This document shows positions 1 to 19,763 of a stretch of DNA of 64,000 nucleotides, piece after piece. Source of the stretch: Alicyclobacillaceae bacterium (GTDB lineage: Bacteria; Bacillota; Bacilli; Kyrpidiales; Kyrpidiaceae); the NCBI GenBank assembly GCA_029961045.1, contig JASBVN010000006.1, positions 1 through 64,000 on the forward strand. Reading direction: 5' to 3'. Below the pieces are notes generated by a model. It was not told where the DNA came from. It saw only the letters and a program-made list of their open reading frames with translations, and did not search any database. The translations under genes were made by a program, and so were the position numbers. Numbering within the stretch: position 1 is the stretch's first letter; each line of letters opens with the position of its first letter.

Positions 1-94
1 CGAACTCGCTGCCGACGGCATCCCACAGCGCCTTCATGACTTTCATCTTGTCTACTGCCTCGTAACTGCCATGATCGGTTCCTCTCCTCTCTTC
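1..94 (-). pseudogene. Fragment resembling the C-terminal part of an HpaB/PheA-type hydroxylase
   Basis: Reading leftwards from position 94, one frame gives the peptide GSYEAVDKMKVMKALWDAVG and continues off the window edge. From memory this matches the region near the C-terminus of flavin-dependent 4-hydroxyphenylacetate/phenol hydroxylases (consensus like LAWDxxGSEFGGRHELYE), not an N-terminus. The same frame has a TAG at 97-95. A ribosome-site-like GAGGAGAGG precedes an ATG at 72, but that frame stops after six codons. A perfect AAGGAGGTGATGA lies at 197-185 and leads only into a 19-codon ORF ending at 129. I read this as a broken or shifted gene. The rest of 100-323 shows no other gene. 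The identity fits the flavin reductase in the cluster but rests on a short match. Confidence 0.3.
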
Positions 95-323
95 CTAATT
101 GCGGTTCAGATGGGTCAGTTCCTTCTCCCTAGACCAAAGATCGATAATCATCTCGGTTAAACATATTTTTCTGAATTATAAATTTCATCACCTCCTTCTA
201 AAATCCATTTGCGCCTCTATATATCCTCTGCGGAATACCAAGCCGCCCCCTCCGAGCACAAAAGCTCCAATGGAAGACCGGTTGCTGCGGGCGGGAAGCC
301 GGCCGAGCTTTCTTTTCCCGCAT

Positions 324-533
324 CTAGGTACCGAGGGGCATCCGTCCGCGGATCAGACTGACGGGCATTCCGGCGATCCCCCAGTTATCCGGGTCGATTT
401 CCACAATAAACACGCGCACCGTCTGGGGGTCAACACCGAGGGTAGTGGTCACATGATCCGTCAGTTCCCGCAACAATTGATGCTTCTGCTCTATGCTGCG
501 ACCGCGCAGCAGGTGAACGCGCACAATAATCAT
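324..533 (-). CDS. 4-oxalocrotonate tautomerase-like protein lacking Pro1
   Basis: A 69-residue protein of the 4-OT (tautomerase) family: beta strand IIVRVHLLRGR, a helix, then VRVFIVEIDPDNWGIAG, as in canonical 4-OT. Family members normally start Met-Pro, and the processed Pro1 is the catalytic base. Here the sequence after Met is Ile-Ile-Val, and no in-frame Met-Pro lies upstream because the preceding gene's stop is only a few bases away. The Arg11-equivalent (RGR) and the second-strand Arg are kept. The start is five bases after the aldolase stop, so it is probably the last gene of the operon. Either it is a non-Pro1 tautomerase with altered chemistry, or a structural paralogue of the Pro1-containing copy at the operon's head. 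Confidence 0.8.
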   Translation of the reverse strand: MIIVRVHLLRGRSIEQKHQLLRELTDHVTTTLGVDPQTVRVFIVEIDPDNWGIAGMPVSLIRGRMPLGT

Positions 534-2493: not shown

Positions 2494-3303
2494 TCACTCT
2501 CCCTTTTTGTCCAGGGTGGGAAATTGCAACAGCACGGTGTCAAGGCCGGCTATCTGCAAACATACACTCTGGCCCGGGCGCACGGGTACAGCACCGGCCA
2601 ACGCCCCCGACAAGACGATGTCGCCCGCCTCCATTCCTTCTCCCATTTCGCCCAATTTATTGGCCAACCAAGCCACGCACACAGCCGGATGTCCGAGGGC
2701 GGCCGCACCCGCGCCGACGGCCTCAACGCGGCCGTCCACGTAAAGAACCATCCCGGCCAACGCCAGATCGAGTTCCTGCCACCGGGTACACCACGGGCCG
2801 ATGGCATAGGCTCCGGAAGAAGCGTTATCCGCCACCGTGTCGACTAACTTGATTTTCCAATCCCGGATGCGACTGTCTACAATCTCGACGGCGGCGGCCA
2901 CAGCCTCGGTGGCGCGGAACACATCTTGAATCGTCACTCCGGGACCGCGGAGCGGCTTTTTCAGCAGAAAAGCGATCTCTCCTTCCACGCGGGGTTGCAG
3001 GAGACGGCCCACATCGACCTCTCCGATTCCGCGGCGCACAGGTACGGACAAGCTGTCCAACAGCGCGCCGTAATCCGGCTCGTGGACCCCCATCATCTGT
3101 TGCATCGCCCGGCTGGTCAGGCCGATTTTTCTGCCCGTGATGCGGTCTCCGGCCTTCAGGCGCAACCGCACCCACGCCTGCTGAACCGCATACGCATCCG
3201 CCACATCGTTCAGCCCGTACGTTTCGCTCAACGGATCAATGGGAGTACGGCTTTGCCACGCCCGGTCCAAACGGGCGGCCATCTCATCGATCGGCAGCCT
3301 CAT
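2494..3303 (-). CDS. dmpE: 2-oxopent-4-enoate hydratase
   Basis: A 269-residue protein of the fumarylacetoacetase-like hydratase/decarboxylase family. The stretch SRIRDWKIKLVDTVADNASS is close to DmpE, and GRKIGLTSRAMQQMMGV and LQPRVEGEIAFLL carry the metal-binding Glu residues. The start is set by an ATGA overlap with the flavin-reductase stop (3303-3300), implying translational coupling; a longer frame upstream is out of register with that gene. It hydrates 2-oxopent-4-enoate to 4-hydroxy-2-oxovalerate, the DmpG substrate. The paralogue at 5271-6035 looks more like the decarboxylase. Confidence 0.88.
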   Translation of the reverse strand: MRLPIDEMAARLDRAWQSRTPIDPLSETYGLNDVADAYAVQQAWVRLRLKAGDRITGRKIGLTSRAMQQMMGVHEPDYGALLDSLSVPVRRGIGEVDVGRLLQPRVEGEIAFLLKKPLRGPGVTIQDVFRATEAVAAAVEIVDSRIRDWKIKLVDTVADNASSGAYAIGPWCTRWQELDLALAGMVLYVDGRVEAVGAGAAALGHPAVCVAWLANKLGEMGEGMEAGDIVLSGALAGAVPVRPGQSVCLQIAGLDTVLLQFPTLDKKGE

Positions 3304-3776
3304 GCAGACTCCTCCATCACCTGGGGCAGGCTCGTGAACTTGCCCGTGTAGAAAATCAGCGGTTGCCCCTCGCGATAATGGAAATCCTCGATCTCTCCCA
3401 GATAGAGGACATGGTCGCCGCCGTCGTACGCCCTCCACGGCCTGCACTCGATCCAGGCCAAAACCCCTCCCAACCGGGGCGCCACTTCACCCTCCTCCCA
3501 CTCCACGACCAACCCCTCCTGGGGGCGCCCCGCAAAGTGCAGGGCCAACTCCTGCTGGTCGGCTGCGAGGATGTTGACGGCGAAGGGCGTCCCCTCGAGT
3601 TTGCTGCAAGCCTTGGCCCGCCGGTCAATGGACACCAACAGCAAGGGCGGATCCAGCGAGACCGACGTAAACGAATTGACCGTGATGCCGTACCGTTCCC
3701 CCGCCGCGGCGTATGTCACCACCGTCACGCCGGTGGCAAAACGACCGAAACAATAACGCAACTCCCGGCTATCCAT
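3300..3776 (-). CDS. Flavin reductase, HpaC/PheA2-like
   Basis: A 158-residue flavin reductase-like (FMN-binding split-barrel) protein. Seen are FATGVTVVTYAAAGERYGIT, VNSFTSVSLDPPLLLVSID and GDHVLYLGEIEDF, all typical of the reductase component of two-component monooxygenases. It would supply reduced flavin to an HpaB/PheA1-type hydroxylase; the only trace of such a partner here is the fragment at the left edge. It sits inside the meta-cleavage operon, overlaps dmpE by four bases, and lies 30 bases after the semialdehyde dehydrogenase. Whether the oxygenase uses phenol, 4-hydroxyphenylacetate or another phenolic cannot be told from this gene. Confidence 0.88.
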   Translation of the reverse strand: MDSRELRYCFGRFATGVTVVTYAAAGERYGITVNSFTSVSLDPPLLLVSIDRRAKACSKLEGTPFAVNILAADQQELALHFAGRPQEGLVVEWEEGEVAPRLGGVLAWIECRPWRAYDGGDHVLYLGEIEDFHYREGQPLIFYTGKFTSLPQVMEESA

Positions 3777-3806: not shown

Positions 3807-5246
3807 TTAGACAGCGACACAGATGTTCATGATCTCGGTGTAAAACTCCATGCTGTAGTGACCGCCCTCACGTCCAATTCCACTGTGCTTCATCCCGCCA
3901 AAGGGAACCCGCAGATCGCGCACGAAGAAATCATTCACCCACACCGTGCCGGCCTTCATGGCCGCCGCCACCCGGTGAGCCCGGCTGACATCCCGCGTCT
4001 GCACCACGGCGCTTAAGCCATAGCGGGTTCCATTGGCCCATTCGATCACTTCTTCTTCGGTCTTGAACGGTGTCACCGTGACCACGGGGCCGAAGACCTC
4101 GTCCTGGCAAATCCGGTCCTGCGGGCCGGCGGCGATCACCGTCGGCATCATGAAGTTACCCCCGCTCAACGGCCCCGCCAATCTCAGCCGTTCTCCGCCG
4201 ACCATCACTTCGTCGCCGTCCTCCCGGGCGGCGCGGACAAACCCCAACACCCGGTCGAGATGCTCCGGAGAAATGAGAGCCCCCATTTCGGTTGCGGGAT
4301 CCATCGGATCGCCGACTTTAATTCCCTTGGCCACCTCGACAAAGTCGGACACAAAGCGGTCGTAGATCGATTCGTGGACGAAAATGCGCGAGCCGGCGAG
4401 GCAAAACTCGCCCTGATTGAAAAAGGCCGCCCTTTTGGCGATCTGCAAGGCCCGTTCGAAGTCGGCATCCTCGAAGATGATGTTCGCTCCCTTTCCGCCG
4501 AGCTCGAAGGAGTAGCGCTTCAAGGTGGCCGCACCGGCCCGCATGATCGTCTGTCCCGTGGTGGTCTCACCGGTAAACGAGATGAGGGCCACATCGGGAT
4601 GCGTGGTCAAGAATTCGCCTGCGCTGTTGGGACCGTGGCCGTGCACCACATTAAAGATTCCGGGCGGCAGATCCGCCTCTTGGGCGAGTTGGGCCAGTTT
4701 CCAGGCCCCGAGGGGGGTCCATTCCGCCGGTTTCAACACCACCGTATTGCCGAAAGCCAGCGCCGGACCGATCTTCCACGTTTCCAACAGGAGGGGGACG
4801 TTCCAGGGAGTGATGAGGGCCGCGACTCCTACCGGTTGGCGAAGCACATAGTTGATGTAGTTATTTTCCATCGGATAGCTCTCCGAGCCGACCATCGTGA
4901 CGAAGTCAGCAAAAAAGCTGATGTTGGCCGCCACCCGTTCGAGATAGTGATGGCTGTTTTCCGAAATCGGCCGGCCCACGTCGAGGGTTTCGATCCGGGC
5001 CAGTTCGTCGGCGGATTTGCGAATGGCATCGGCAAACCGGTTCAAGATGCGACGCCGTTCCGAGGGCTTGGTTTTCGACCATTTCTCAAAAGCCCGCTTC
5101 GCCGCTTCCACCGCCGCGTTGACCTCTTCCCGCCCGCCGTCCGGCGCCGTCCCGATCACCTCGCCCGTCGCCGGATAATGCACCGGGAACCGCTCGCCGC
5201 CGTCCACAAACTTTCCATTGATATAGTGCTGAACCTCGAACTGCAT
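3807..5246 (-). CDS. dmpC: 2-hydroxymuconic semialdehyde dehydrogenase
   Basis: A 479-residue aldehyde dehydrogenase. PWNVPLLLETWKIGPALAFGN and ELGGKGANIIFEDADFE (catalytic Glu) and FNQGEFCLAGSR (catalytic Cys) are intact. Family and context (tautomerase, decarboxylase, hydratase, aldolase) point to oxidation of 2-hydroxymuconate semialdehyde to 4-oxalocrotonate, the NAD-dependent branch of catechol meta cleavage. The homoprotocatechuate enzyme HpaE is a close relative and cannot be ruled out from sequence alone. The ATG at 5246 has GGGGGAG upstream. Confidence 0.88.
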   Translation of the reverse strand: MQFEVQHYINGKFVDGGERFPVHYPATGEVIGTAPDGGREEVNAAVEAAKRAFEKWSKTKPSERRRILNRFADAIRKSADELARIETLDVGRPISENSHHYLERVAANISFFADFVTMVGSESYPMENNYINYVLRQPVGVAALITPWNVPLLLETWKIGPALAFGNTVVLKPAEWTPLGAWKLAQLAQEADLPPGIFNVVHGHGPNSAGEFLTTHPDVALISFTGETTTGQTIMRAGAATLKRYSFELGGKGANIIFEDADFERALQIAKRAAFFNQGEFCLAGSRIFVHESIYDRFVSDFVEVAKGIKVGDPMDPATEMGALISPEHLDRVLGFVRAAREDGDEVMVGGERLRLAGPLSGGNFMMPTVIAAGPQDRICQDEVFGPVVTVTPFKTEEEVIEWANGTRYGLSAVVQTRDVSRAHRVAAAMKAGTVWVNDFFVRDLRVPFGGMKHSGIGREGGHYSMEFYTEIMNICVAV

Positions 5247-5270: not shown

Positions 5271-6035
5271 TCAGATGATCGGTGCCACCAGTCTGGACTC
5301 CGCCGGTCCTTCCGCCGCCAGCATCCGCGCCTCCCCAATCGGCACGGCGGAACAGGGCGCGCCCAACAGGATGATGTCGCCCGCCCGAAGTCCTCGCCCC
5401 AGCCGACGGGCTTGCTCAGCCGCCCACGCCAACAACGCCAGCGGGTCGCCCAAATTCACAAGCGCACCTTCCTCCCATTCCCCTGCATCCAGAGACACCC
5501 GAAGCGCACCCTCCTGCCGCCAGAGCACCTCCGGAGACAGCGGGCGCCCGCTCAGGACAACGGCTCCGCCCGAAGCATTGTCGGCCACGACGTCGGCCCC
5601 CGTAAACCTGTAGCCTGCATAGATACTGTCCAGTATATCGACCGCCAATTGCACAAAGGCGATGCTCGCCAGCAGGTCACCGGCCCGAGCATCCTCCGGC
5701 GGGGTACGGTCGAACACGACCGCCAGTTCAGGTTCCACGCGCGGTTGGATGAAGCGCTCACGCACAACCGGCTCGCCCGGTTGGATGAGCATCGAGCGGT
5801 GCAAGTGACCGATAATCGGCTCGGAAACCTTCATCTGTTCCTGCTTGGCCCGGCTGATGAGCCCCAGCTTGTATCCAATCACCGGGTCTCCCTCCGCCTC
5901 CCGGTGGCGGGCCAACTCAACCTGTATCTGGTAGGCCTCCTGAAGCGTCAGAGGATGTTCCTCCAGAAACGAACCCCGAACCCTCAACTGGCTGCGGCAC
6001 TGCAGGATGGCAGTCGCAACAGCGCTTTTGTCCAT
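5271..6035 (-). CDS. dmpH: 4-oxalocrotonate decarboxylase (DmpH-like)
   Basis: A hydratase/decarboxylase-family protein, paralogous to the gene at 2494-3303. VIGYKLGLISRAKQEQMKVS and the following PIIGHL resemble DmpH/NahK more than DmpE. FIQPRVEPELAVVFD supplies metal-binding Glu residues and VVADNASGGAVVLSG is the family core. With a tautomerase in front and a hydratase behind, decarboxylation of 4-oxalocrotonate is the expected step. I chose ATG 6035 (MDKSAVATA), with GGAGG ten bases upstream, giving 254 residues. ATG 6071, just after the tautomerase stop, is a fair alternative. Confidence 0.8.
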   Translation of the reverse strand: MDKSAVATAILQCRSQLRVRGSFLEEHPLTLQEAYQIQVELARHREAEGDPVIGYKLGLISRAKQEQMKVSEPIIGHLHRSMLIQPGEPVVRERFIQPRVEPELAVVFDRTPPEDARAGDLLASIAFVQLAVDILDSIYAGYRFTGADVVADNASGGAVVLSGRPLSPEVLWRQEGALRVSLDAGEWEEGALVNLGDPLALLAWAAEQARRLGRGLRAGDIILLGAPCSAVPIGEARMLAAEGPAESRLVAPII

Positions 6036-6076
6036 TCCACCCGGTCCTCCGTTGCCCCAGTTTTCCATCATTCGCC

Positions 6077-6280
6077 TCACGGTCTGTCGTCCCAATCTCC
6101 CGATGCCGCCGCCGAACCGTCAAACAGGTTTTCTTCGGGGATCTCGTGCAGGACGATCCGGATCTGTTCCGATTGCGAGTGGAGAACCCGGTTCATAATT
6201 CCGACGATGCCCTCCACCAAGGCCTTTTTCGATTCCTTCGGAAACCTCCCGTCTTCCAAGATCACCTCGATAAACGGCAT
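6077..6280 (-). CDS. dmpI: 4-oxalocrotonate tautomerase
   Basis: A 67-residue tautomerase that ketonises 2-hydroxymuconate. Starting at ATG 6280 the protein begins Met-Pro-Phe-Ile-Glu, giving the catalytic Pro1. The Arg11-equivalent in LEDGR and the strand IRIVLHEIPEEN with its Arg are present. GGAGAGGATGAG precedes this ATG; an in-frame ATG six codons earlier would bury Pro1 and is unlikely. It is the first gene of the minus-strand catabolic operon, directly behind an AT-rich inverted repeat. Confidence 0.88.
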   Translation of the reverse strand: MPFIEVILEDGRFPKESKKALVEGIVGIMNRVLHSQSEQIRIVLHEIPEENLFDGSAAASGDWDDRP

Positions 6281-6293
6281 CTCATCCTCTCCA

Positions 6294-6312
6294 ATCATAT
6301 ATCTTATATGAT
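6294..6312. promoter_or_regulatory. Inverted repeat, candidate operator of the meta-cleavage operon
   Basis: ATCATATA-TCT-TATATGAT is a perfect 8-bp inverted repeat with a 3-base centre, 14 bases before the tautomerase start. It lies in a sharply AT-rich stretch within GC-rich surroundings and may overlap the -10 region. No regulator gene lies next to it, so the binding protein is unknown. Confidence 0.45.
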
Positions 6313-9246: not shown

Positions 9247-10128
9247 TTACTCTTTCCCGGTGTCCACTGCGGTGCGCACGCCGTTCGTGCGCCAGACCAG
9301 CAATCTCTTTTCCAAGATTTTGAGTAGAAAGGCAAACAAACTGAATTCCAGTCCGATCAACACAATTGCCACAAACATGTTGGACATTTTGAAATAATTT
9401 CGGGCGTCGACGATGATATACCCCAATCCGCTCTTGGCGCCCATCATCTCGGAGACGATCAGAGAGGAAAACGACAGCCCTAAACTGACATTGGCCCCGA
9501 CAAAGATGTTCGGCAGCGCCGACGGCAACATGACCCGGGTGAAGATGTGTCTTCCCGAGGCACCGAGGCTGAGGGCGGACCGGATCAGAGTGGGCGGAAC
9601 CGATTTAAAACCGTCCAGGGTATACGCCAGCACCGGAATAAAGGTCGTCCAGGCGATCAACAAGATTTTGGGAAACTCCCCGATGCCGAACCAGATGATA
9701 AAGATCGGCAATAGAGCCAAGGCGGGGATCGGCCCCAACATGTTGAAAATCGGCCCTAGCCAGGTTTCGACCGTCCGCGACCGGCTCATCAGAATGCCGC
9801 AAAGGACGGCCGCCGAACAGCCGGTGAGGAAACCTACTGTAATGCGCAGCGTGCTGGCGACAACGCTTTGAATGATGAGGCCCTTTTGGGCCAGTGCCCA
9901 TCCGTCGAGAAGGATCGCCGTGGGAGCCGGCAGGAACAGCGGATTGAACCAATGAAACAACCCGTTGGCACGGCTGACCGCTTCCCATATCAGGAAGAAG
10001 GTAACGACCGGAATCAAGGACATGAGAAAGCCGGCGCTGCGGAGTCCCTTGGGAGGCCGCGTTCCGGTCCTCGTCCGGCTCCGGCCCTCAGAAAGGGACA
10101 ACGCGTCTGCCGGAGTCCCGGGTTTCAT
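9247..10128 (-). CDS. ABC transporter permease, SsuC/TauC type
   Basis: A 293-residue inner-membrane protein of the BPD_transp_1 family with about six membrane segments. The cytoplasmic loop with LIRSALSLGASGRHIFTRVMLP is the EAA motif that contacts the ATPase. I start it at ATG 10128 (MKPGTPADA), with AAGGAGGG nine bases upstream, although the frame is open further. It overlaps the end of the ATPase gene by about 40 bases, showing tight coupling within the operon. Confidence 0.88.
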   Translation of the reverse strand: MKPGTPADALSLSEGRSRTRTGTRPPKGLRSAGFLMSLIPVVTFFLIWEAVSRANGLFHWFNPLFLPAPTAILLDGWALAQKGLIIQSVVASTLRITVGFLTGCSAAVLCGILMSRSRTVETWLGPIFNMLGPIPALALLPIFIIWFGIGEFPKILLIAWTTFIPVLAYTLDGFKSVPPTLIRSALSLGASGRHIFTRVMLPSALPNIFVGANVSLGLSFSSLIVSEMMGAKSGLGYIIVDARNYFKMSNMFVAIVLIGLEFSLFAFLLKILEKRLLVWRTNGVRTAVDTGKE

Positions 10129-10882
10129 GGACCAAATTCCCTCCTTCCCCAGGATCCTCTTCTTCCAAAAGCAGGCGTTCAATGTCTGCCCGCAACTCCA
10201 GCAGGCGGGGATGGGCGGCGGAACGCGGCCTCGGTTCGTCCAGGAGATATTCCGCCGCCAGTCGGCCGTTTTTCAGGACCAGAATTTTGTCCGCCAGGTA
10301 GACAGCTTCGCCGATGCTGTGCGTGACGAACAGGACCATCGTTTTCAGTTCCAACCAGATGCGCAACAACTCTCGCTGCATCATTTCCCGGGTCAGAATA
10401 TCCAAAGCGCCAAAAGGTTCGTCCATCAGCAGGATATCCGGCTCATTAGCCAAGGCTCTGGCGATCCCGATACGCTGTTTCATCCCGCCGGAAAGTTGGT
10501 GTGGGTAATCATCCGCGTAGGCTTCCAGGCCGACCATCCTCAGGTAGCGGAAGGCTTGAGCCCGGACTTCCCCTTTGGGCAGTCCACGGACCGATGGGCC
10601 GAATTCAACATTCTGGAGCACGGTGTACCAGGGAAACAAGGCGTGGTCTTGAAAAACGACACCCCGGCTCTTGTCGGGCCCGCGGACGGGCACTCCGTCG
10701 ACCAGGATTTCGCCCTGGTCCGGCTGTATAAAACCCGCGATCAAATTCAACAAGGTCGATTTGCCACAGCCGCTGTGTCCCAGAATGCACACGAATTCGT
10801 GGGGACCAACTTGAAAGCTCACATCCTTCAACACTACCCGGCCACCGTAGCTTTTCCCGACTCCCGCGACAACCAAGGACAT
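10088..10882 (-). CDS. ABC transporter ATP-binding protein, SsuB/TauB type
   Basis: A 264-residue ATPase with Walker A GHSGCGKST, Q-loop VFQDHALFPW, signature LSGGMKQR, Walker B ILLMDEPFGALD and the H-switch VTHS. The ALFPW and FGALD forms are typical of nitrate/sulfonate/taurine importers. The start is ATG 10882, preceded by AAAGGAGGG. It is the first gene of the operon ATPase-permease-binding protein-allantoinase. Confidence 0.92.
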   Translation of the reverse strand: MSLVVAGVGKSYGGRVVLKDVSFQVGPHEFVCILGHSGCGKSTLLNLIAGFIQPDQGEILVDGVPVRGPDKSRGVVFQDHALFPWYTVLQNVEFGPSVRGLPKGEVRAQAFRYLRMVGLEAYADDYPHQLSGGMKQRIGIARALANEPDILLMDEPFGALDILTREMMQRELLRIWLELKTMVLFVTHSIGEAVYLADKILVLKNGRLAAEYLLDEPRPRSAAHPRLLELRADIERLLLEEEDPGEGGNLVHETRDSGRRVVPF

Positions 10883-10956
10883 GGCCTTCCCTCCTTTCGT
10901 GCCATCAAGTCCGTGACGCATTCACCGCCTCGTGTTACATTTCACACCCTCTCTAC

Positions 10957-10977
10957 TTGTAGTAGATTAAATTACAA
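10957..10977. promoter_or_regulatory. Imperfect inverted repeat upstream of the ureide importer operon
   Basis: TTGTAGT...ATTACAA (6 of 7 arm bases complementary, 7-base centre) about 75 bases before the ATPase start, in an AT-rich gap of about 185 bases between the operon and the end of pucR. A plausible control site for this operon; the protein that binds it is unknown. Confidence 0.3.
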
Positions 10978-11067
10978 TTGATGTATATGTATCTAACATA
11001 ATAATGATCTACTCCCGGTTTGTCATTATGCGACCTGCCCAAAATCGATATAATATTTCATTGACGA

Positions 11068-12756
11068 TCAACGATAACTGTCCGATGAAGACGCGTCTTT
11101 CTCATCATCTTCGGCGTCCCGAGTCCACAGCAGAGAACGGGCGAGAAGGGCGACGCGCAAACGCAACGTCACATCGGGCTCCTTGAGATCCTTGCCGAGC
11201 AGTTCTTTGCATTTTTCGAGCCGGTAGATCACCGTATTCCGGTGAATGTACAATTGTTTCGCCGTTTCGGCGATCTGGCAATGATTCTCCAGGTAAACCG
11301 CCAGAGTCTGAAGAAGATCCATTTTTTCTTTGTCGGCCGGGTAGGCCAACTCTTTCAGAGAGCTCTCATAGAATTCCCGGAGGTCCGCCTTGGGAATCCA
11401 CCGGAGGAGATCGGTCAATTCCTTGGCCCGGTACGGTTGGATAAAACAGGTTTTCCCCGATCGGTATCCCACCCGGAGGGCCTCATCGGCTTCCCGGTAC
11501 GCCTTGGGCAAATCGGAAAAACGCCGGACGGACGAGCTGATGCCGAAAGACACGGAAACACCGGCCTGCCGGAAGATTTCCTCCTGTATCGAACGCAACC
11601 GTTCGACCATTTCCTGTTCTTCCCGCTCTCCGTATTCGGCAACGGGATACAGGAAGACGAACAGTTCCCCACGGGTAAAGAGGATGGAGCCGTCGGTGTC
11701 GCGGGACAGTTCCGCCTCCAGCCCGTCGTACACGGCGTCGCGCATCCGGCGCACTTTCTCCCTCGACCAACTTTCCGCACCTTCTCCCCGCCTGTCGATC
11801 CGGCAGGTCACACACACGTACGGCTGATTTTCCCGCAAGCCGTACACTTTCCCGAGGTTGGCGATCTCCCGGCGGGAAGCGGTGTCCCCGCTCAAAAAGT
11901 CGGTGAAAAACTCATTTTTGATGCGCCGCATGTTTTCTTCGACCGCTTGGCGTTTCATCAACTCAAAGGCCATGACGTTGACGGCCTGTTCCACCGCCAA
12001 CAAGGAATACGCCCCGGATTCAAAGGGAAACCCGAAGATGACGAGGAACCCGCTTTGCTGCCGGTGGGTTCGAACGGGAAACACGGTGAAGGTCCTCGAT
12101 TCCTCCGGTTCCCCGGGGAACGAAAAGGCCGCCATGGTCCCCTCCCCTTTGGCCAGGGACCTCAGGCAAGGAATCAACCGCGCGCGGTACCGGTCCTCGC
12201 CGCCGGGCGGACGCGGAGAGGCCGCAATGATTTCAAAACGGGAGCCCAACAACAGAACCGGACATCCCAGAAGGGCATTCAGGTTTTCCACGAGCGCCCG
12301 GACCCCTTTGCCGCGAAAAACGAGATCCGTAAACGTCCGGTGAACGTCGAGGGCATAGCGCAGTTCTTCGGCCCGTTTCTCCAGGATGTGGTTCAAAGTC
12401 TGGTTGACGATTTCCCCGAGGGAATAGTCGTAGGGCAACTCGATAATGGGAAAGGCAAGGGCGTTGGCCGCGCGGATCACGTCCGGCGGAACTTCCGCAA
12501 AAAAGCGCCGGGTCTTAATGCCCAGTCCCGCACACCCTTTTTTCGCCATTTTCCGGACCAGTTCGACCAGCGCCCCCGAATCGTCCTTAATGGAATAACC
12601 GGTGGTCACCAGCAACTCGTCAGGCTTCAAAAAATCGATAATATCGGGAGCATCCATCATGTTCACGGAGTGAACGTCCCGCGTCATGCCGTTTTCCCCC
12701 GCGACGATCCTCGCCCCGGCGAACACGGGTATTTTCATTAAATCCCCGACTTTCAC
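11068..12756 (-). CDS. pucR: PucR-family transcriptional regulator
   Basis: About 562 residues. The N-terminal PucR domain (about 1-125) contains VNMMDAPDIIDFLKPDELLV and FPIIELPYDYSLGEIVNQ. A middle GGDEF-like region holds VSVSFGISSSVRRFSDLPKA. The C-terminal CdaR/PucR helix-turn-helix is QIAETAKQLYIHRNTVIYRL. The GTG at 12756 with AGGAGGG eight bases upstream is the best start. B. subtilis PucR controls purine and allantoin catabolism. Its position between the importer/allantoinase operon and the divergent amidohydrolase genes fits control of both. The C-terminal tail is Asp/Ser-rich. Confidence 0.9.
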   Translation of the reverse strand: MKVGDLMKIPVFAGARIVAGENGMTRDVHSVNMMDAPDIIDFLKPDELLVTTGYSIKDDSGALVELVRKMAKKGCAGLGIKTRRFFAEVPPDVIRAANALAFPIIELPYDYSLGEIVNQTLNHILEKRAEELRYALDVHRTFTDLVFRGKGVRALVENLNALLGCPVLLLGSRFEIIAASPRPPGGEDRYRARLIPCLRSLAKGEGTMAAFSFPGEPEESRTFTVFPVRTHRQQSGFLVIFGFPFESGAYSLLAVEQAVNVMAFELMKRQAVEENMRRIKNEFFTDFLSGDTASRREIANLGKVYGLRENQPYVCVTCRIDRRGEGAESWSREKVRRMRDAVYDGLEAELSRDTDGSILFTRGELFVFLYPVAEYGEREEQEMVERLRSIQEEIFRQAGVSVSFGISSSVRRFSDLPKAYREADEALRVGYRSGKTCFIQPYRAKELTDLLRWIPKADLREFYESSLKELAYPADKEKMDLLQTLAVYLENHCQIAETAKQLYIHRNTVIYRLEKCKELLGKDLKEPDVTLRLRVALLARSLLWTRDAEDDEKDASSSDSYR

Positions 12757-12778
12757 GGCCCAGGCCCTCCTTCTATTT

Positions 12779-12797
12779 ATGATAAATAATTTATCAT
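12779..12797. promoter_or_regulatory. Perfect palindrome between pucR and the divergent amidohydrolase operon
   Basis: ATGATAAAT-A-ATTTATCAT is a 9-bp perfect palindrome 22 bases before the pucR start. Partial copies of one arm follow at about 12803-12811 (GTCATAAAT) and 12825-12833 (ATCATAAAT), in an AT-rich gap of 170 bases. This arrangement suggests cooperative binding by a dimeric regulator, most simply PucR itself. Confidence 0.5.
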
Positions 12798-12926
12798 ATA
12801 ATGTCATAAATTGTTCTCTTAGATATCATAAATAAAATCATCTTTGTGAACCAGTCATGTTACATAATGACGAACCGGTGGCTCGGGACTTAGGATAGAT
12901 GCAGTACGCCACAGGAGTGTGTGTTC

Positions 12927-14213
12927 ATGTCCGGAGACAAAATCAATCTCGAACGGATGATGCATCGCCTGAATCAGCTGGCTTTGTGCAGCAGAGGAAG
13001 TCGCGGCATTACCCGGCTTTCCTTCAGCCGGGAAAGCGAATGCGCCAACCGATTGGTCCGGGACTGGATGCGAGAGGCGGGAATGGTTGTAAGGATGGAT
13101 CCCCTCGGCAATGTCATCGGCCGCTACGAAGGGCGGAGACCCGGTGCCCCGGCTTTTCTCATCGGTTCGCACCTCGATTCCGTCATCGAAGGGGGTAAGT
13201 ACGACGGGGCGCTCGGGGTCGTGGCGGGAATCGAAATCGTGCAGACCCTCCGGGAACGGGGACTCCGCCCGGATCTCCCCATCGAGGTGATCGCCTTTTG
13301 CGACGAGGAAGGAGCGAGATTCCACACGACCCTTCTCGGAAGCCGGGCCATGGCGGGGATGTTGCGCGAAGAAGATTTGTGCGCACGGGATTCCGACGGC
13401 ATCACCCTGGCCGAGGCGATGCGATCCTTTGGTCTCGACCCATCCCGGTACACGGACGCCGTCCGCGATCCGCAGAGCGTCGCCGGCTATTTGGAACTGC
13501 ATATCGAACAAGGTCCCGTGCTGGAACGGGAGGACCAAGCCTGCGGCGCGGTGAGCGGAATCGCCGGAGCCGCCCGCTGCCGGTTCCGAGTAGAAGGAAG
13601 GGCCAGCCACGCCGGAACGGTACCCATGAGCCTGCGACGGGACGCCCTGGCGGGTGCGGCAGAAATTGTTCTCGCCGTCGAACGCATCGCCGGCCGGATG
13701 CCGTCTGTGGTCGCCACCGTCGGACAACTCCGGGTTTTTCCCGGCACAAGCAACGTGATCCCCGGAGCCGTGGAAGGAACGTTGGACGTGCGCAGTATGG
13801 AAGACGAGCAAAGACAAGCCGCTCTGAAGGAAATCTGTGAAGAGGCGGAACGGATCAGCCGGAGAAGGGGACTGTCCTTTACCTGCCGGACCGTGATGGA
13901 AGCGGCGGCGACACCATGTTCCGCCCGCCTCGTTCAGGCCGTCGAAGAAGCTCTGGCGAAACGGGGATTGAAGCCTCTGCGAATCCCCAGCGGCGCGGGA
14001 CACGATGCCCTGGCCATGGCCTCCCTGACCGAGGTGGGCATGATTTTCGTGAGGTGCCGGAACGGGATCAGCCACCATCCGGACGAATACGTCGCCCCGG
14101 AGGATGTGGGAACGGGTACCGCTGTGTTACTCGACGCCGTCCTGGAGCTGACGGCGGCAGAGACGGCGGAAAAATTTCTCAATAAAGCCGTGAAGGGAGC
14201 TAATACGCCATGA
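12927..14213 (+). CDS. allC: Allantoate amidohydrolase / N-carbamoyl-L-amino acid hydrolase
   Basis: A 428-residue M20-family hydantoinase/carbamoylase. Metal-site motifs are IGSHLDSVIEGGKYDGALGV, FCDEEGARF and HIEQGPVLE; SGAGHDALAMA and GISHHPDEYV complete the active site. Context with allantoinase and PucR favours allantoate as substrate, but carbamoyl-amino-acid hydrolases share all these motifs. The start is ATG 12927 with AGGAG nine bases upstream. It opens the plus-strand operon and ends in an ATGA overlap with the next gene. Confidence 0.85.
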   Translation: MSGDKINLERMMHRLNQLALCSRGSRGITRLSFSRESECANRLVRDWMREAGMVVRMDPLGNVIGRYEGRRPGAPAFLIGSHLDSVIEGGKYDGALGVVAGIEIVQTLRERGLRPDLPIEVIAFCDEEGARFHTTLLGSRAMAGMLREEDLCARDSDGITLAEAMRSFGLDPSRYTDAVRDPQSVAGYLELHIEQGPVLEREDQACGAVSGIAGAARCRFRVEGRASHAGTVPMSLRRDALAGAAEIVLAVERIAGRMPSVVATVGQLRVFPGTSNVIPGAVEGTLDVRSMEDEQRQAALKEICEEAERISRRRGLSFTCRTVMEAAATPCSARLVQAVEEALAKRGLKPLRIPSGAGHDALAMASLTEVGMIFVRCRNGISHHPDEYVAPEDVGTGTAVLLDAVLELTAAETAEKFLNKAVKGANTP

Positions 14214-15556
14214 ATGAACGGAAACCGGCCACCCGGGAAGCGATCCCCGCACAAAGCCGCCCCGACAAAAGGCGGTTGTTCGACTGGATCGATGAAAACC
14301 GCGGAGCCATCGTGGAGTTCCTTCAAGAACTGGTCAAAATCCCCTCCGACAATCCGCCCGGGGATTGTTGGGCCATCGCCGAACACCTCTACCGGCGGCT
14401 CAACCGGTTGCCGCTGGACGATGTGCGCCTTCTGAATGTGCCGCCCGAGGCGGCGGCGTCAAGGGGAATGATCCGCGTGGCCAACGTCGTCGCCACCGCC
14501 GTTTTCGGCGACGGCTCCGGTCTGAACATCGCCTTGAACGCCCACGGGGACGCCGTGGCTCCCGGATTGGGATGGGCCCGGGATCCCTACGGAGGGGAGG
14601 TGGTGGACGGAAAATTATACGGCCGGGGGGCGGCGGTCTCGAAATCGGATATTGCAGCGTACACCTTTGCGGTCGCGGCCTTGCGCCGGGCAACGGCCCC
14701 CCTGTCCGGGACGGTGACCCTCGCCTTCACCTTTGATGAAGAAACGGGCGGAATCATCGGCCCTAAACGTCTGCTGGAAACGGGGGTGATCCGCCCCGAT
14801 ATGGCCATTACGGCCGGTTTTACCCATTCGATTGTCAATGCCCACAACGGCTGTCTCCATCTGGAGATCCGGATCAAAGGCCGGTCGGCCCACGCCGCGG
14901 AGCCGCACCGGGGCGTCGACGCCGTCGAGGCCATGGTCGACGTGGTGCAGGCGCTGTACCGCTATCGCGACACCCTGTCCAGACAACATTCCAGCACACC
15001 GGGCATCGCCTCTCCGACGATGGTCGTCGGCCTGATTTCCGGCGGAATCAACACCAATGTGGTGCCGGACCTCTGTACGATTCGCCTCGACCGCCGGTTA
15101 ATCCCGGAAGAAGACGGAGAGGTCGTAGAGGCGGACATCCGGCGGATCGTCGAAGAAGCGTCGAGACCGCGAGGAGTGGAGGTGGAAATCGAACGCCTTC
15201 TCTACGCCAGGCCCATGAAGCCCACTCCTCCCGACTCCCCTTTGATACGCGCACTGACGGCCAACTGGAAGGCGGTGATGGGAGGAAAAGACCCGGAAAT
15301 CCACGGCATTCCGCTGTACACCGATGCCCGTCATTTTGCCGAAGCCGGCATTCCGGTGGTGTTGTTCGGGGCCGGCCCGCGGACCCTCGCCGAAGCCAAC
15401 GGACACCGGGCAGACGAAAACGTGCGGATTGACGACCTGATCCTCGCGACCAAAATCGTCGCCGCCACCCTCTACGATCTTTTGTCGGAAAGTTGCGATC
15501 TTATGCCGAACCGTGTTGTGCCGGAAGGGGGAAAGACCGGTGAGGAGCGAGGTTGA
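14210..15556 (+). CDS. M20-family peptidase/deacylase, unusual metal-site variant
   Basis: A 448-residue M20/ArgE-DapE relative. NAHGDAV, FTFDEETGGIIG and the late NGHRADENV supply His, Glu and His. In most members the third segment reads GRGxxDMKG, with a bridging Asp; here it reads YGRGAAVSKSDIAAY, so Val occupies that Asp position. I recall a sub-group of M20 proteins with this VSKSD form, so this is probably a subfamily trait, not decay. The ATG overlaps the stop of the allantoate hydrolase gene (ATGA). In this setting it may act on ureidoglycolate or another ureide product, but the substrate cannot be read from the sequence. Confidence 0.75.
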   Translation: MNERKPATREAIPAQSRPDKRRLFDWIDENRGAIVEFLQELVKIPSDNPPGDCWAIAEHLYRRLNRLPLDDVRLLNVPPEAAASRGMIRVANVVATAVFGDGSGLNIALNAHGDAVAPGLGWARDPYGGEVVDGKLYGRGAAVSKSDIAAYTFAVAALRRATAPLSGTVTLAFTFDEETGGIIGPKRLLETGVIRPDMAITAGFTHSIVNAHNGCLHLEIRIKGRSAHAAEPHRGVDAVEAMVDVVQALYRYRDTLSRQHSSTPGIASPTMVVGLISGGINTNVVPDLCTIRLDRRLIPEEDGEVVEADIRRIVEEASRPRGVEVEIERLLYARPMKPTPPDSPLIRALTANWKAVMGGKDPEIHGIPLYTDARHFAEAGIPVVLFGAGPRTLAEANGHRADENVRIDDLILATKIVAATLYDLLSESCDLMPNRVVPEGGKTGEERG

Positions 15557-15756
15557 CTTGGTCGTCCGCGCCATGGCCGAAGTGGTTAGGCGCCCCTCTT
15601 CGTCGGACGTCTCTCGTTTTCTGACTTCTAAATAATTTCCCACACAAAATTTTTGAGAATGATTTGGACAAGCCTCAATGGTTCTTCAACCCTTCTTAAC
15701 GGCATGTGTTTATTGATAGACTCAAAGAACAATCCCGTTAGGAGGATAGGGGCAGT

Positions 15757-17628
15757 ATGGATTGGACGAGACGCGCATTTTTAAAAGCCCTTTTGGCGGG
15801 CTCGGCGTATGTTCTAATAGAAAGTCTGGGGGTCAACCGGTGGGCCCAGGCTGCCCAAAACATTCCGCAGTCGGACCCGGGCTTCCGGCCGCAATACACC
15901 CCTGGGTTCGGGTTCCCGCAATCGGTGGCGTCGGGGGACCCCACCTCTACCGGCGCGATTTTGTGGACCCGGGTCGATCCCGCCGTGGCGCAGGGCATCA
16001 GCGCGAAAAATTTCGATCCGAATCTGATTCAATGGATGAGCCAAACCCAGGGCCAAGGTTGGAGCGACACCGTAGCTTCGGCAATCCAGGCGGGGCAGTT
16101 CGTGCAGTTCGAAGTGAGCACCGATCCGGGGTTCCAGAGCCCGGTCTTGCGGGGGTACGCCCCCATCTACAAAGATTTCGATAATGTCGTCAAGGTGGAT
16201 CTCAACGGCCGGCTGCAACCGAAGATGACATACTATTATCGATTCATCACCAAAGACGGCCACGTGACCCGCCCGGGACGGTTTAAAACCCTGGCACCGG
16301 AGAACCAATCTCCCTCCTCGGTTCGGATTGCCTATGTCAGTTGCGCCGATTACACCAACGGATATTATCACGCTTATCGCTTTCTCGCCCAAGAAGAGGT
16401 GGATTTCGTCGTCCATCTCGGGGATTATATTTATGAATCGGTGGGAGATCCCAACTATCAGAACCCGTTGGCCGACCGCACGATCCGGTTACCGGGAGGA
16501 AAACTCAAAGCTACTACGGTGGAGGACTACCGAACCCTGTACCGTACCTACCGGTCGGATCCGGACTTGCAAGCCGTACATGAGCGGCACGCCATGGTGG
16601 CCGTTTGGGACGATCACGAGTTCGCCAACGACTGCTACGCCGCCGTGGCGCCCGACGATACCCTGTCTTCTAACGCGACCCGCCGGAGTGTAGCCAATCA
16701 GGTGTGGTTCGAATACATGCCCGCCCGTGTTCCCTTCGACCCGACCAAAGATTTTCAGAATTCCATTCGCCTGTACCGTTCTATCAAAATCGGCAATTTA
16801 GTAGAATTGATCCTGACCGATGAGCGGCTCTATCGCAGCCCCCATCCGTGTGGGGAAGGACTGGTGGGTTCGCGCTACCTCACTCGGGGATGTTCAAAAA
16901 TGCACGACCCCAACCAGTCCATGCTGGGGATGGAGCAGCGCAATTGGTTCATCGATCGTTTGACCCATTCCACGGCCGTGTGGAAGGTGTGGGCCAACGA
17001 GGTCCAATTTACGACACTAAAACTACTGGGGTTGTATTTGAACCTCGACGCTTGGGACGGCTATGACGGAGAGCGCACGTGGCTCTTGAACCAGATTCAA
17101 CAAACGGGTGTCCGAAATTTTGTCGTCATGACCGGAGATCTACATACCTTCCAGGCCGGTATCATCCCTTCCAACTGGAATGTTTTACTTTTCCGCGGGA
17201 AACCGCTCGGCGTGGAGTTGATGACCGGTTCCATCACGGGGTCGAACCTCAAGGAAATGGTCGAACACACGATGTTCGGCCGAGTGGCCACCGGCTGTCC
17301 CCTCCCCAGGGAGGTAACCGAGTGGTTGGTCAATCACATCCTGCAACCGGTGCAAAAATGGACAGAGCAGCACCTCGGCAAATTTTTCGACGAAATATCC
17401 AAGGTCATTCACTTGGAAAACCCGTGGATCCAGCTGTTCGACAGCACCCAGCACGGGTACTGCGTGCTGGATTTCACCCCGAGCCACCTGGTCTGGACCG
17501 CCTATAGCGTCGGCGACATCCGTTCCCGCTCGGGGGCAAACAAGCGTCTTCTCTATCAGTGCGAGGTGCCCGAAGGAAATCCATCCTTGCGCCCCCTGGC
17601 AAGCCACCCGATTCTGCTTCCCCACTGA
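15757..17628 (+). CDS. phoD: PhoD-family alkaline phosphatase/phosphodiesterase
   Basis: A 623-residue secreted enzyme. The N-terminus TRRAFLKALLAGSAYVL is a twin-arginine signal. Then come the PhoD N-terminal domain (FPQSVASGDPTSTGAILWTR) and the metallophosphatase domain: IAYVSCADY (Fe-ligand Cys), VHLGDYIYE, VWDDHEFANDC and VMTGDLHTF. It releases phosphate from esters, with Fe3+/Ca2+ cofactors in known PhoD. AGGAGG lies ahead of the ATG. It stands alone between the ureide genes and a strong terminator; I saw no clear Pho box in the preceding 200 bases. Confidence 0.92.
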   Translation: MDWTRRAFLKALLAGSAYVLIESLGVNRWAQAAQNIPQSDPGFRPQYTPGFGFPQSVASGDPTSTGAILWTRVDPAVAQGISAKNFDPNLIQWMSQTQGQGWSDTVASAIQAGQFVQFEVSTDPGFQSPVLRGYAPIYKDFDNVVKVDLNGRLQPKMTYYYRFITKDGHVTRPGRFKTLAPENQSPSSVRIAYVSCADYTNGYYHAYRFLAQEEVDFVVHLGDYIYESVGDPNYQNPLADRTIRLPGGKLKATTVEDYRTLYRTYRSDPDLQAVHERHAMVAVWDDHEFANDCYAAVAPDDTLSSNATRRSVANQVWFEYMPARVPFDPTKDFQNSIRLYRSIKIGNLVELILTDERLYRSPHPCGEGLVGSRYLTRGCSKMHDPNQSMLGMEQRNWFIDRLTHSTAVWKVWANEVQFTTLKLLGLYLNLDAWDGYDGERTWLLNQIQQTGVRNFVVMTGDLHTFQAGIIPSNWNVLLFRGKPLGVELMTGSITGSNLKEMVEHTMFGRVATGCPLPREVTEWLVNHILQPVQKWTEQHLGKFFDEISKVIHLENPWIQLFDSTQHGYCVLDFTPSHLVWTAYSVGDIRSRSGANKRLLYQCEVPEGNPSLRPLASHPILLPH

Positions 17629-17645
17629 GGTTCCGGCAACCCGTC

Positions 17646-17679
17646 AAAAGCCCGGACCCTTTTGGCGGTCCGGGCTTTT
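17646..17679. terminator. Bidirectional intrinsic terminator after phoD
   Basis: A 13-bp perfect stem, AAAAGCCCGGACC pairing with GGTCCGGGCTTTT, loop of eight bases, with A- and T-runs on either side. It can stop phoD transcription rightward and transcription across the amidase remnant leftward. Confidence 0.9.
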
Positions 17680-17713
17680 GATGCCAGGTCGGATGTCACC
17701 GCGAAGCGGGAAT

Positions 17714-18025
17714 TCAAACCTCATATCTTAAATTGGGTAGGGAAAGTTCTTGTTCAAAGGCATACGCAAACCGGTAAAGATTGGCCTCATCGAAGGGTCG
17801 GCCGATGAGCTGTAGCCCAATGGGCATCCCCGACGCCGAAAACCCGCACGGAATCGATAGACTGGGGAAGCCGTTAAAATTAGTTGGACTCGTTAAACGG
17901 ACAAGGACGTTGCGGACATGATCCGGACGGCCGTTGATCCGAACTTCTCTTTGTTCGATGTCCGGCGGAAGGATGGGAAGAGTCGGAGTCAAAACCAAAT
18001 GTTTGAATAATATCTTTTTGAGCAT
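17714..18025 (-). pseudogene. Truncated amidase (amidase-signature family), C-terminal remnant
   Basis: A 103-residue frame matching only the last part of amidase-signature enzymes: [34 protein letters not shown] and [20 protein letters not shown]. The Lys-Ser-Ser catalytic region, roughly the first 380 residues, is missing, and the upstream DNA (18026-18270) gives no matching frame. The similarity stops abruptly near residue 10. It ends against the shared terminator after phoD. Best read as a deletion remnant with no activity. Confidence 0.8.
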
Positions 18026-18278
18026 AGGAAATGGATGAAAACAATCATGCCCATAATAAAAATAACAGAAATCTTCTCATGATCCTCCCTCCAAACCTTT
18101 GTCGCTTTTTTGCAATCAAAAAATCCTTACGAATCCCGAACTCCGCCCCTCCCTTCCTCCGTGAATTTAGCAAAATCCGTCCCAAACAAAAAGGGACTCT
18201 ACCGAAGCCACTCCCATTCGCTCAGCCGCCTTGCAGATCGTTCCCGTACCCCTCCAGCGCCATTCCCCCTCTTCCCGG

Positions 18279-18308
18279 TTGGACGGGAATCGGGCGAGTC
18301 CGTATAAT
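18279..18308 (+). promoter_or_regulatory. SigA-type promoter of the UMF1 transporter gene
   Basis: TTGGAC, 18-base spacer, TATAAT, ending 85 bases before the ATG at 18394. The spacing is one base over the optimum and the -10 is perfect. Confidence 0.6.
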
Positions 18309-18393
18309 GGAATTGCGCACAAACGGGGCTCACTTGTCCATATTGTGTAAAATTTGGCATGACGCCGTGTCGGAAAAAGAAGGAGGCGGGGGG

Positions 18394-19653
18394 ATGGATC
18401 GGAAAGCGGTCCGGGGATGGGTGATGTACGACTGGGCAAACTCCGCTTATGCCACCACGATGATTGCGGCAGTACTTCCGATCTTTTATACGGATGTGGC
18501 GGCGAAAACCCTCGACAAAACGACGGCGACCTCCTATTGGGGCTATACCCAGTCCATCGCCATGTTGCTGGTGGCCGTCATGGCCCCGGTGTTGGGAGCG
18601 GCGGCCGATTTGAGTGGAACGAAAGTTCGCTTTTTGCGGTTCTTTTGTTATGTAGGAGTTCTTTCGTGCCTCTTGTTCGTCTTCGTGCGGCCCGGCGATT
18701 ACGGAATGGCTTCGCTGTTGTCGATCTTAGGAATGCTGGGATTTTCGGGAGGAAATACGTTTTACGACGCCCTGCTGCCCGACTTAGTTCCCCCGGAAAA
18801 GCGGGATTACGTCTCCGCCCGCGGATATGCGTACGGGTACATCGGAGGCGGAATTTTGCTGGCCCTGAACCTCGCCATGATCCAGAAGCCCGGATATTTT
18901 CTGCTCCCCGATTCCCTGACGGGCACATACGTTTCGTTCGTCAGCGTCGGGGTGTGGTGGTTCCTCTTCTCCCTCCCCCTGTTTCGCCACGTCAAGGATC
19001 GACCGGTTCCAACGAGATGGACGATCGTTCAGTATGCAAAAGCCGGGTTTTCGAGAACGTGGCAGACGTTAAAGGAAATCTCGGCTTATCCGGAACTGGC
19101 CAAATTTATTTTGGCCTTTTGGTTTTTCAACGACGGCATCAACACCATCATCACGATGGCCGCAATTTATGGACGGGAAATCGGAATCGGGACCGGCGAT
19201 CTGATCACCGCCCTTTTGATCACCCAGTTTGTAGGAATTCCCTTCACACTCCTGTTCGGAAAACTTGCAGAACGACTGGGCTCTAAGACTTCCCTGTACC
19301 TGTCCCTCGCCATCTATGTGGTCATCGTGATTCTCGGATCCTTTATGCAGACGGCCTTGCATTTCTATCTTTTAGGATTCTTGGTTGGGTTTGTACAGGG
19401 AGGCAGTCAAGCGATCGCCCGTTCGATTTACAGCAACTTGGTGCCTCCCGACCGTTCCGCCGAGTTTTTCGGATTCCTCAACGTGTCCAGCAAATTCGCG
19501 TCGATCTTCGGACCGTTCGCATTCGCCCTCATCGGACACCTGACCTCTTCCAGTCGATCCGGCATTTTGATCCTCGTGTTGTTTTTCATCCTCGGCATCT
19601 TTTTGCTGACCCGCGTGGACCTGGCGAAAGGCCGCGCCGAAGCCCTCCGCTGA
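18394..19653 (+). CDS. UMF1/Atg22-family MFS transporter
   Basis: A 419-residue polytopic membrane protein with about 12 segments. The N-terminal WVMYDWANSAYATTMIAAVL and the GGNTFYDALLPDLVP motif are hallmarks of the UMF1 (Atg22-like) branch of the major facilitator superfamily; GFVQGGSQAIARSIYSNLVP is its C-half counterpart. The start ATG 18394 follows AAGGAGGCGGGGG; the frame is open 120 codons upstream but that part has no protein-like features. Substrate unknown; family members are often called efflux or amino-acid exporters. It is monocistronic. Confidence 0.88.
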   Translation: MDRKAVRGWVMYDWANSAYATTMIAAVLPIFYTDVAAKTLDKTTATSYWGYTQSIAMLLVAVMAPVLGAAADLSGTKVRFLRFFCYVGVLSCLLFVFVRPGDYGMASLLSILGMLGFSGGNTFYDALLPDLVPPEKRDYVSARGYAYGYIGGGILLALNLAMIQKPGYFLLPDSLTGTYVSFVSVGVWWFLFSLPLFRHVKDRPVPTRWTIVQYAKAGFSRTWQTLKEISAYPELAKFILAFWFFNDGINTIITMAAIYGREIGIGTGDLITALLITQFVGIPFTLLFGKLAERLGSKTSLYLSLAIYVVIVILGSFMQTALHFYLLGFLVGFVQGGSQAIARSIYSNLVPPDRSAEFFGFLNVSSKFASIFGPFAFALIGHLTSSSRSGILILVLFFILGIFLLTRVDLAKGRAEALR

Positions 19654-19763
19654 AATCGCGCCGACCGCCGGATCCGAGAAAACCCGCCCCGCCGATCCGC
19701 CAAGCCCTTCTCCAAACACACACCTCGCGACCTCTCCTCTTCTCGAAAAAAAAGGGGATAGCC

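What the first reader, a model, noticed from the sequence alone, without database searches (positions are those of the whole stretch)
324..533. Tautomerase-family protein without the catalytic Pro1 in a meta-cleavage operon
The operon has two 4-OT-like genes. The first (6077-6280) keeps Pro1; this one starts Met-Ile-Ile-Val and no alternative Met-Pro start exists, yet the Arg11-equivalent and the fold residues stay. Such non-Pro1 members are rarely characterised. It might act on a different intermediate or form a mixed oligomer with the first.
Basis: partly seen in the sequence, partly recalled or inferred. Interest (0 to 1): 0.5.

Follow-up and report, generated by a model that had tools for sequence, protein, structure and literature searches.

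The report
Two-subunit tautomerase, one lacking catalytic proline
A small enzyme subunit has lost the proline that normally does the chemistry, but in each of the five genomes where it was found there is a partner that still has it, so the two most likely build one shared enzyme, a design already known from a heat-loving bacterium.

Summary
ORF 324-533 (-), here TautB, is a 4-OT-type tautomerase that starts Met-Ile-Ile-Val, has no Met-Pro start, and keeps Arg11, Arg39 and Trp50. It is not a sequencing error: five orthologs (window included) from five genera lack Pro1 (Ile, Ile, Ile, Val, Val), while 50 of the 51 other tautomerase-like sequences read in my loci have it. All five genomes also carry an ortholog of the Pro1 gene at 6077-6280 (TautA). 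In two scans of 398 class genomes TautB occurs in 3 and TautA in 4, sharing three. In one relative the genes between them are gone from the locus, leaving scars, yet both tautomerases remain under purifying selection. The closest precedent is the heterohexamer 4-OT of Chloroflexus aurantiacus (PDB 3MB2): its alpha chain begins Met-Leu-Leu-Leu, also without Pro1, and works with a Pro1 beta partner (abstract recalled, paper not held). Best reading: TautA supplies Pro1 and TautB supplies Arg and aromatic residues in one mixed hexamer acting on 2-hydroxymuconate. Common origin with the Chloroflexus chain is neither shown nor rejected (AU p 0.244).

The parts
324..533 (-). TautB: tautomerase subunit without Pro1 (hh4-OT alpha-like); 69 aa, Met-Ile-Ile-Val start
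   Evidence: orthologs; beta-alpha-beta model
6077..6280 (-). TautA: partner subunit with Pro1, without the W-G-I-x-G C-terminal motif (proposed hh4-OT beta-like); 67 aa
539..1594 (-). 4-hydroxy-2-oxovalerate aldolase (DmpG)
   Evidence: TIGR03217, 523.6 bits
1606..2490 (-). acetaldehyde dehydrogenase, acylating (DmpF)
   Evidence: TIGR03215, 432.4 bits
2494..3447 (-). 2-hydroxypentadienoate hydratase-like (DmpE-like; below equivalog cut-off); the true start is probably near 3300
   Evidence: TIGR03220, 285.7 bits, cut-off 408.8
3300..3776 (-). flavin reductase of a two-component monooxygenase
   Evidence: PF01613, E 1.4e-37
3807..5246 (-). 2-hydroxymuconic semialdehyde dehydrogenase-like
   Evidence: TIGR02299 598 bits and TIGR03216 564.8 bits, both below cut-off
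5271..6095 (-). 4-oxalocrotonate decarboxylase/hydratase-like (DmpH-like); the G016 ortholog starts at MDKSAVAT
   Evidence: TIGR03218, 114.4 bits, below cut-off 350.55
6294..6312 (-). inverted repeat ATCATATAAGATATATGAT just upstream of TautA, also recognisable upstream of TautA in the relatives (possible operator)
1..120 (-). remnant of an HpaB-like flavin monooxygenase gene, cut by the contig end and out of frame

Best explanation
TautB (324-533) and TautA (6077-6280) are the two subunits of a heterohexameric 4-oxalocrotonate tautomerase (three alpha-beta dimers), of the kind solved from Chloroflexus aurantiacus. TautA carries the general base Pro1. TautB has a branched aliphatic residue at that place (and probably a retained Met) and contributes conserved Arg11, Arg39 and the aromatic residue 50 to active sites shared between subunits. 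The complex converts 2-hydroxymuconate to 2-oxo-3-hexenedioate between the HMSD-like dehydrogenase and the DmpH-like decarboxylase. Shown here: absence and conservation of non-Pro1, conservation of the other residues, co-occurrence and joint retention, and resemblance to the 3MB2 alpha chain. Inferred: physical assembly, which subunit gives which residue, and the substrate.
For: Five TautB orthologs (window, G001, G016, G606, G836) all lack Pro1 and keep R11, R39, W50. TautA is found in all five of those genomes. In the class scans TautB is in 3 of 398 genomes (154-165 bits, next match 59.5) and TautA in 4 of 398 (99-144 bits; the other six genomes with a match at E<=1e-5 have 31 bits or less). 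The three TautB genomes are among the four; the chance for independent draws is 3.8e-7, without correcting for kinship. The fourth, G044, has a contig that ends inside the last codons of DmpG, just before TautB's place, and no TautB in its assembly. In G001 the intervening genes are absent from the locus, with scars of DmpG and of the DmpE/F junction, yet TautA and TautB remain, with window-G001 pN/pS of 0.31 and 0.27. In G606 and G836 TautB is the only match to the TautB profile at E<=0.01, so no canonical 4-OT was seen there. 3mb2_A, the alpha chain of the Chloroflexus heterohexamer 4-OT, begins MLLLRITMLEGRS, without Pro1, and matches the TautB profile over 1-65 at E 4e-14. In 4-OT, Pro1 sits between Arg11' and Arg39'' of other subunits (PMC5818174, passage), so division of labour is structurally possible.
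Against: No assembly or activity data. The profiles were built from the window, G001 and G016 members, so those three match by construction; the single-protein search gave 112 and 93 bits for G001 and G016 against 48.4 for the next. TautA in G001, G016 and G606 was first found by looking near TautB, and TautA was not searched in the phylum sample or in the class of G606. The 3mb2_B beta chain matches the TautA profile only weakly (13.3 bits, E 0.92). TautB is less like 3mb2_A (20 of 60 identical) than like the best of 21 canonical 4-OTs (27 of 60); in the single-sequence search of solved structures several canonical or other chains rank above 3mb2_A; grouping with 3mb2_A has no support once the N-terminal columns are left out (34% of bootstrap trees, AU p 0.244). 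TautA keeps a basic residue at 11 and Arg at 39, so it might work alone. G000, G001 and G016 also have canonical 4-OTs elsewhere, so there the pair is not the only source of the activity. The single-sequence model of TautA was poor and could not confirm its fold. The Chloroflexus paper was not held; its content is recalled.
Confidence: 0.82

Rival explanations
1. TautB is a homohexamer that catalyses without Pro1, using its N-terminal amino group or another residue, on a different pathway intermediate.
For: Arg11, Arg39 and Trp50 are kept and it is under purifying selection. PMC5818174 lists use of an N-terminal amino group or another mechanism as a possibility (passage).
Against: It does not explain why the Pro1 gene TautA is present in 5 of 5 genomes with TautB, nor the retention of both in G001. 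Residue 1 is I or V, with no conserved new acid-base residue in its place.
Confidence: 0.08
2. TautB is a non-catalytic structural or regulatory partner that stabilises TautA, without giving residues to its active sites.
For: Co-occurrence and co-retention fit this too.
Against: The active-site Arg11, Arg39 and Trp50 of TautB are invariant in 5 of 5 orthologs, which a purely structural role would not need.
Confidence: 0.08
3. The missing Pro1 is an artefact: sequencing error, wrong start, or a decaying copy.
For: The window comes from a fragmented draft genome (55 contigs, 79.55% complete).
Against: Two base changes would be needed. Four other assemblies show MII, MII, MVI, MVM. pN/pS against G001 and G016 is 0.27 and 0.29. 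No earlier start exists.
Confidence: 0.01

Closest known systems
Heterohexamer 4-OT (hh4-OT) of Chloroflexus aurantiacus J-10-fl, PDB 3MB2 (Burks et al. 2010, Biochemistry 49:5016; not held, recalled)
   Same: Alpha chain without Pro1 (starts MLLL), with GRS at 10-12, Arg39 and Trp50; a separate partner chain, named beta subunit in the entry
   Different: TautB shares 20 of 60 residues with 3mb2_A. The TautA profile matches 3mb2_B only at E 0.92. A common origin of the two pairs is not shown.
Canonical homohexameric 4-OT (XylH/DmpI, e.g. PDB 1BJP, 4X19)
   Same: Beta-alpha-beta core, Arg11, Arg39, aromatic at 50, and same pathway place
   Different: Pro1 absent in TautB, and two genes in place of one
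trans-3-chloroacrylic acid dehalogenase (CaaD), alpha3beta3 heterohexamer
   Same: Two 4-OT-like chains in one enzyme (PMC5818174, passage), with the catalytic residues divided between them (recalled)
   Different: Its gene context is not the meta-cleavage pathway, and both of its chains keep Pro1 (both recalled)
CF and YR heterohexamers of the 4-OT family (PDB 8T9O, 8T9P)
   Same: Alpha and beta 4-OT chains; the TautB profile matches 8t9o_A over 3-66
   Different: Whether one of their chains lacks Pro1 was not read here

Membership tests
4-OT subgroup of the tautomerase superfamily | 4-OT sequence family match | tested here: met
   PF01361 E 6.5e-15 and TIGR00013 59.5 bits over cut-off 56.9 for TautB; TautA PF01361 35.3 bits over cut-off 22, but TIGR00013 33.1 below cut-off
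4-OT subgroup of the tautomerase superfamily | beta-alpha-beta fold | tested here: met
   TautB model E2-9, H14-32, E39-46 (mean pLDDT 71.6, residues 52-66 under 50); Z 7.4 to 4x1c, 7.2 to 1bjp, 6.9 to 3mb2_I over 52-53 residues (Z under 8 alone may be a common arrangement). TautA's model failed.
Canonical homohexameric 4-OT | catalytic Pro1 | tested here: not met
   TautB has Ile at that place, Ile or Val in 5 of 5 orthologs
hh4-OT (Chloroflexus type) | alpha chain without Pro1 but with Arg11, Arg39 | tested here: met
hh4-OT (Chloroflexus type) | a nearby second gene for a Pro1-bearing partner | tested here: met
   TautA near TautB in the window, G016, G001 and on one contig in G606; on another contig in G836
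hh4-OT (Chloroflexus type) | partner homologous to the 3MB2 beta chain | tested here: inconclusive
   13.3 bits, E 0.92
hh4-OT (Chloroflexus type) | common ancestry of the non-Pro1 chains | tested here: inconclusive
   AU p 0.244; 34% of bootstrap trees
hh4-OT (Chloroflexus type) | alpha3beta3 assembly and 2-hydroxymuconate tautomerase activity | not testable with these tools
   needs purified proteins; the structure predictor on hand takes single proteins

The most novel reading that the evidence does not exclude
The Bacillota TautA/TautB pair is a second, independent invention of the split 4-OT: the loss of Pro1 in one copy, and of the hairpin motif and strict Arg11 in the other, happened apart from the Chloroflexus pair. 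In G001 the pair was kept beside the ring-cleavage genes while the pathway genes between them were lost from the locus, which would fit a dedicated substrate such as a substituted 2-hydroxymuconate.
Probability: 0.3. Interest if true: 0.45.

Novelty: new member of a known kind. Interest (0 to 1): 0.25.

Why it matters
It gives a likely function to a protein that annotation would call either a normal 2-hydroxymuconate tautomerase or a dead one. It also shows that a split enzyme with a non-Pro1 chain occurs as a conserved pair in at least two classes of one phylum (Bacillota by the record title). If independent of the Chloroflexus pair, it would be a small, tractable case of duplicated subunits losing complementary catalytic parts.

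Tried and rejected
Sequencing error, wrong start and pseudogene were rejected. Strict complementary loss of Arg11 in TautA looked right on the first three sequences (R, K, K) but is only partly true: R in 3 of 6 and K in 3 of 6 (sequences). Two scans of the named genome collection gave nothing and one locus, L081, which is the same contig as G606:C2 by length and place. The plasmid collection gave 24 records, all below 60% identity; their N-termini were not read. Single-sequence folding of TautA gave a helical, low-confidence model, which was not searched further. G044 has no TautB in its assembly even at E 0.01. A possible further non-Pro1 member (L027) proved to be a domain inside a longer reading frame. 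In the Pro1 count, 15 of 101 loci gave no tblastn hit to TautB and are left out (TautA and other loci, but also L017, L018, L019 and L028, where the genome search had reported a match; I did not find out why); one best hit per locus was read, and 'start plus Pro' means M, V or L followed by P within about five residues of the aligned start. Paper searches on Kyrpidia with catechol, and on alpha and beta subunits, gave nothing of use in their listings. One search stopped with a script error after its first part and its second part was repeated.

Full report
What is there. The ORF at 324-533 on the - strand reads MIIVRVHLLRGRS.... The ATG at 533 is the first start codon of its frame, placed 5 bases after the DmpG stop. 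It belongs to the 4-OT family (PF01361 E 6.5e-15; TIGR00013 59.5 bits, cut-off 56.9). I call it TautB. The gene at 6077-6280, TautA, starts MPFIEVILEDGR. Between them lie DmpH-like, HMSD-like, flavin reductase, DmpE-like, DmpF and DmpG genes, all on the same strand. The window begins at a contig start (G000:C52:1). A search of the whole draft genome with PF01361 gives three matches: these two and a canonical Met-Pro 4-OT on contig C18, in a second meta operon.

Not an error. A search of 61 genomes (the window's own and 60 relatives) gave two close orthologs, in G001 (81% identity) and G016 (67%), both starting MII; they scored 112 and 93 bits, the next 48.4. A profile of the three against 398 genomes of the class gave 93 with some match at E<=1e-9; only G000, G001 and G016, the members of the profile, score 154-165 bits, and the next is 59.5. 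Of the 30 loci kept from that scan, 27 are not orthologs, and all 27 carry Pro after the start. A phylum sample of 398 added G606 (MVI). The class of G606 (72 genomes) added G836 (MVM) and a canonical Met-Pro sequence in G813. Over all fetched loci, 56 distinct tautomerase-like sequences were read: 50 have a start followed by Pro, 5 are TautB, and 1 (L027) is inside a longer frame; 15 of 101 loci gave no hit and are not counted. TautB is under purifying selection: pN/pS 0.27 to G001 and 0.29 to G016; values to G606 and G836 are 0.56 and 0.60, with silent sites near saturation.

A constant pair. TautA orthologs occur in 4 of 398 class genomes at 99-144 bits: G000, G001, G016 and G044 (the first three are in the profile, and six further genomes match at 31 bits or less). 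With a wider profile, ten chosen genomes were searched: TautA is also in G606 (108 bits, itself in that profile) and in G836 (59 bits, not in it); G002, G003, G053 and G813 have none above 24.8 bits. So 5 of 5 genomes with TautB have TautA. The sixth TautA genome, G044, has a contig that stops in the last codons of DmpG, where TautB would follow, and no TautB elsewhere in the assembly. TautA was not searched in the phylum sample or in the class of G606, so how often it occurs there without TautB is unknown. In G016 the eight-gene order is the same as in the window and continues with an HpaB-like monooxygenase, catechol 2,3-dioxygenase and monooxygenase components. In G606, TautA precedes DmpH and HMSD, and TautB lies beyond DmpG, HpaB, a dioxygenase and a transporter. 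In the 19 kb fetched from G001 only TautA, flavin reductase and TautB remain of the eight; about 50 bases of the DmpG 3' end and a 42-base match to the DmpE/DmpF junction (E 6e-4) survive as scars. Both tautomerases there stay under selection (pN/pS 0.31 for TautA and 0.27 for TautB against the window). That the pair was spared is the best evidence that they work together.

Is the pair needed? G000, G001 and G016 also have canonical 4-OTs elsewhere, near other meta-pathway genes, so in them the pair is an addition. In G606 and G836 the TautB profile finds only TautB at E<=0.01, so in these two the pair is the only 4-OT candidate seen with that profile.

Residues. In 5 of 5 TautB orthologs Arg11, Arg39 and Trp50 are kept; residue 1 is I, I, I, V, V. 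In TautA, Pro1 and the Arg39-equivalent are kept in 6 of 6; position 11 is R in 3 and K in 3, and the W-G-I-x-G motif is missing in all six (one search aligns five of them; sequences of all six, read by eye). In 4-OT, Pro1 lies between Arg11' and Arg39'' from other subunits (PMC5818174, passages read), so each active site of a mixed hexamer could join Pro1 from one chain with Arg from the other. Met before Ile is normally not removed, so the TautB N-terminus is probably blocked (general knowledge).

Precedent. PDB 3MB2 is titled as the heterohexamer 4-OT of Chloroflexus aurantiacus. Its alpha chain as displayed begins MLLLRITMLEGRS and has no Pro1 (found with a bait recalled from memory, 109 bits). 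The TautB profile matches it over 1-65 at E 4e-14, behind several canonical and fused chains. From memory, the abstract of Burks et al. 2010 says that thermophile genomes had an annotated tautomerase-like protein lacking Pro1 with a Pro1 protein nearby, and that the two form an active heterohexamer; the paper is cited as reference 26 in PMC5818174 but was not held. PMC5818174 reports 346 superfamily sequences without Pro1, 13 in the 4-OT subgroup, with Ser, Ile and Ala commonest after Met (passages). So the finding is a member of a known kind.

Limits. With the three N-terminal columns left out, the five TautB form a group (87/82), but grouping with 3mb2_A needs two changes in the best tree, appears in 34% of bootstrap trees, and is not rejected (AU p 0.244; 27 rows). 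With those columns in, and 30 rows, the six group with 73/77 support. 3mb2_A is a long branch in both. The TautA profile meets 3mb2_B only at 13.3 bits. The structure model of TautB shows the 4-OT core; that of TautA failed. Assembly, division of residues and activity are inferred.

Noticed in passing
window 1-120 (-): An HpaB-like gene starts (MAVTR) and, within 85 bases of the contig end, continues out of frame with residues matching 421-446 of the G016 ortholog: an internal deletion or a contig-end assembly fault. A genome search with the G016 protein found no other copy at E<=1e-5.
   Followed up: partly
window 6294-6312 (-): Inverted repeat ATCATATAAGATATATGAT next to the TautA ribosome-binding site; closely similar in G001, G016 and G044, weaker in G836 and G606 (by eye). 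Possible operator of an unidentified regulator.
   Followed up: partly
L034 (G000:C18:1-9000): A second meta-cleavage operon in the same genome with a canonical Met-Pro 4-OT, HMSD, DmpF and DmpG (56-59% identity to the window's), and a catechol 2,3-dioxygenase further along the contig.
   Followed up: partly
L032 8631-9380 (G001): Deletion scars: 3' end of DmpG and a DmpE/DmpF junction remnant between flavin reductase and TautB.
   Followed up: yes
L079 (G606) 9809-19901: The G606 cluster has TRAP-type transporter genes and a short AhpD/CMD-like ORF between the dioxygenase and TautB; these names rest on my reading of the translations, not on a family search.
   Followed up: no
window 2494-3447 (-): The DmpE-like ORF as listed overlaps the flavin reductase by about 150 bases; the G016 ortholog suggests a later start (MRLPIDEMAARL) near 3300.
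   Followed up: no
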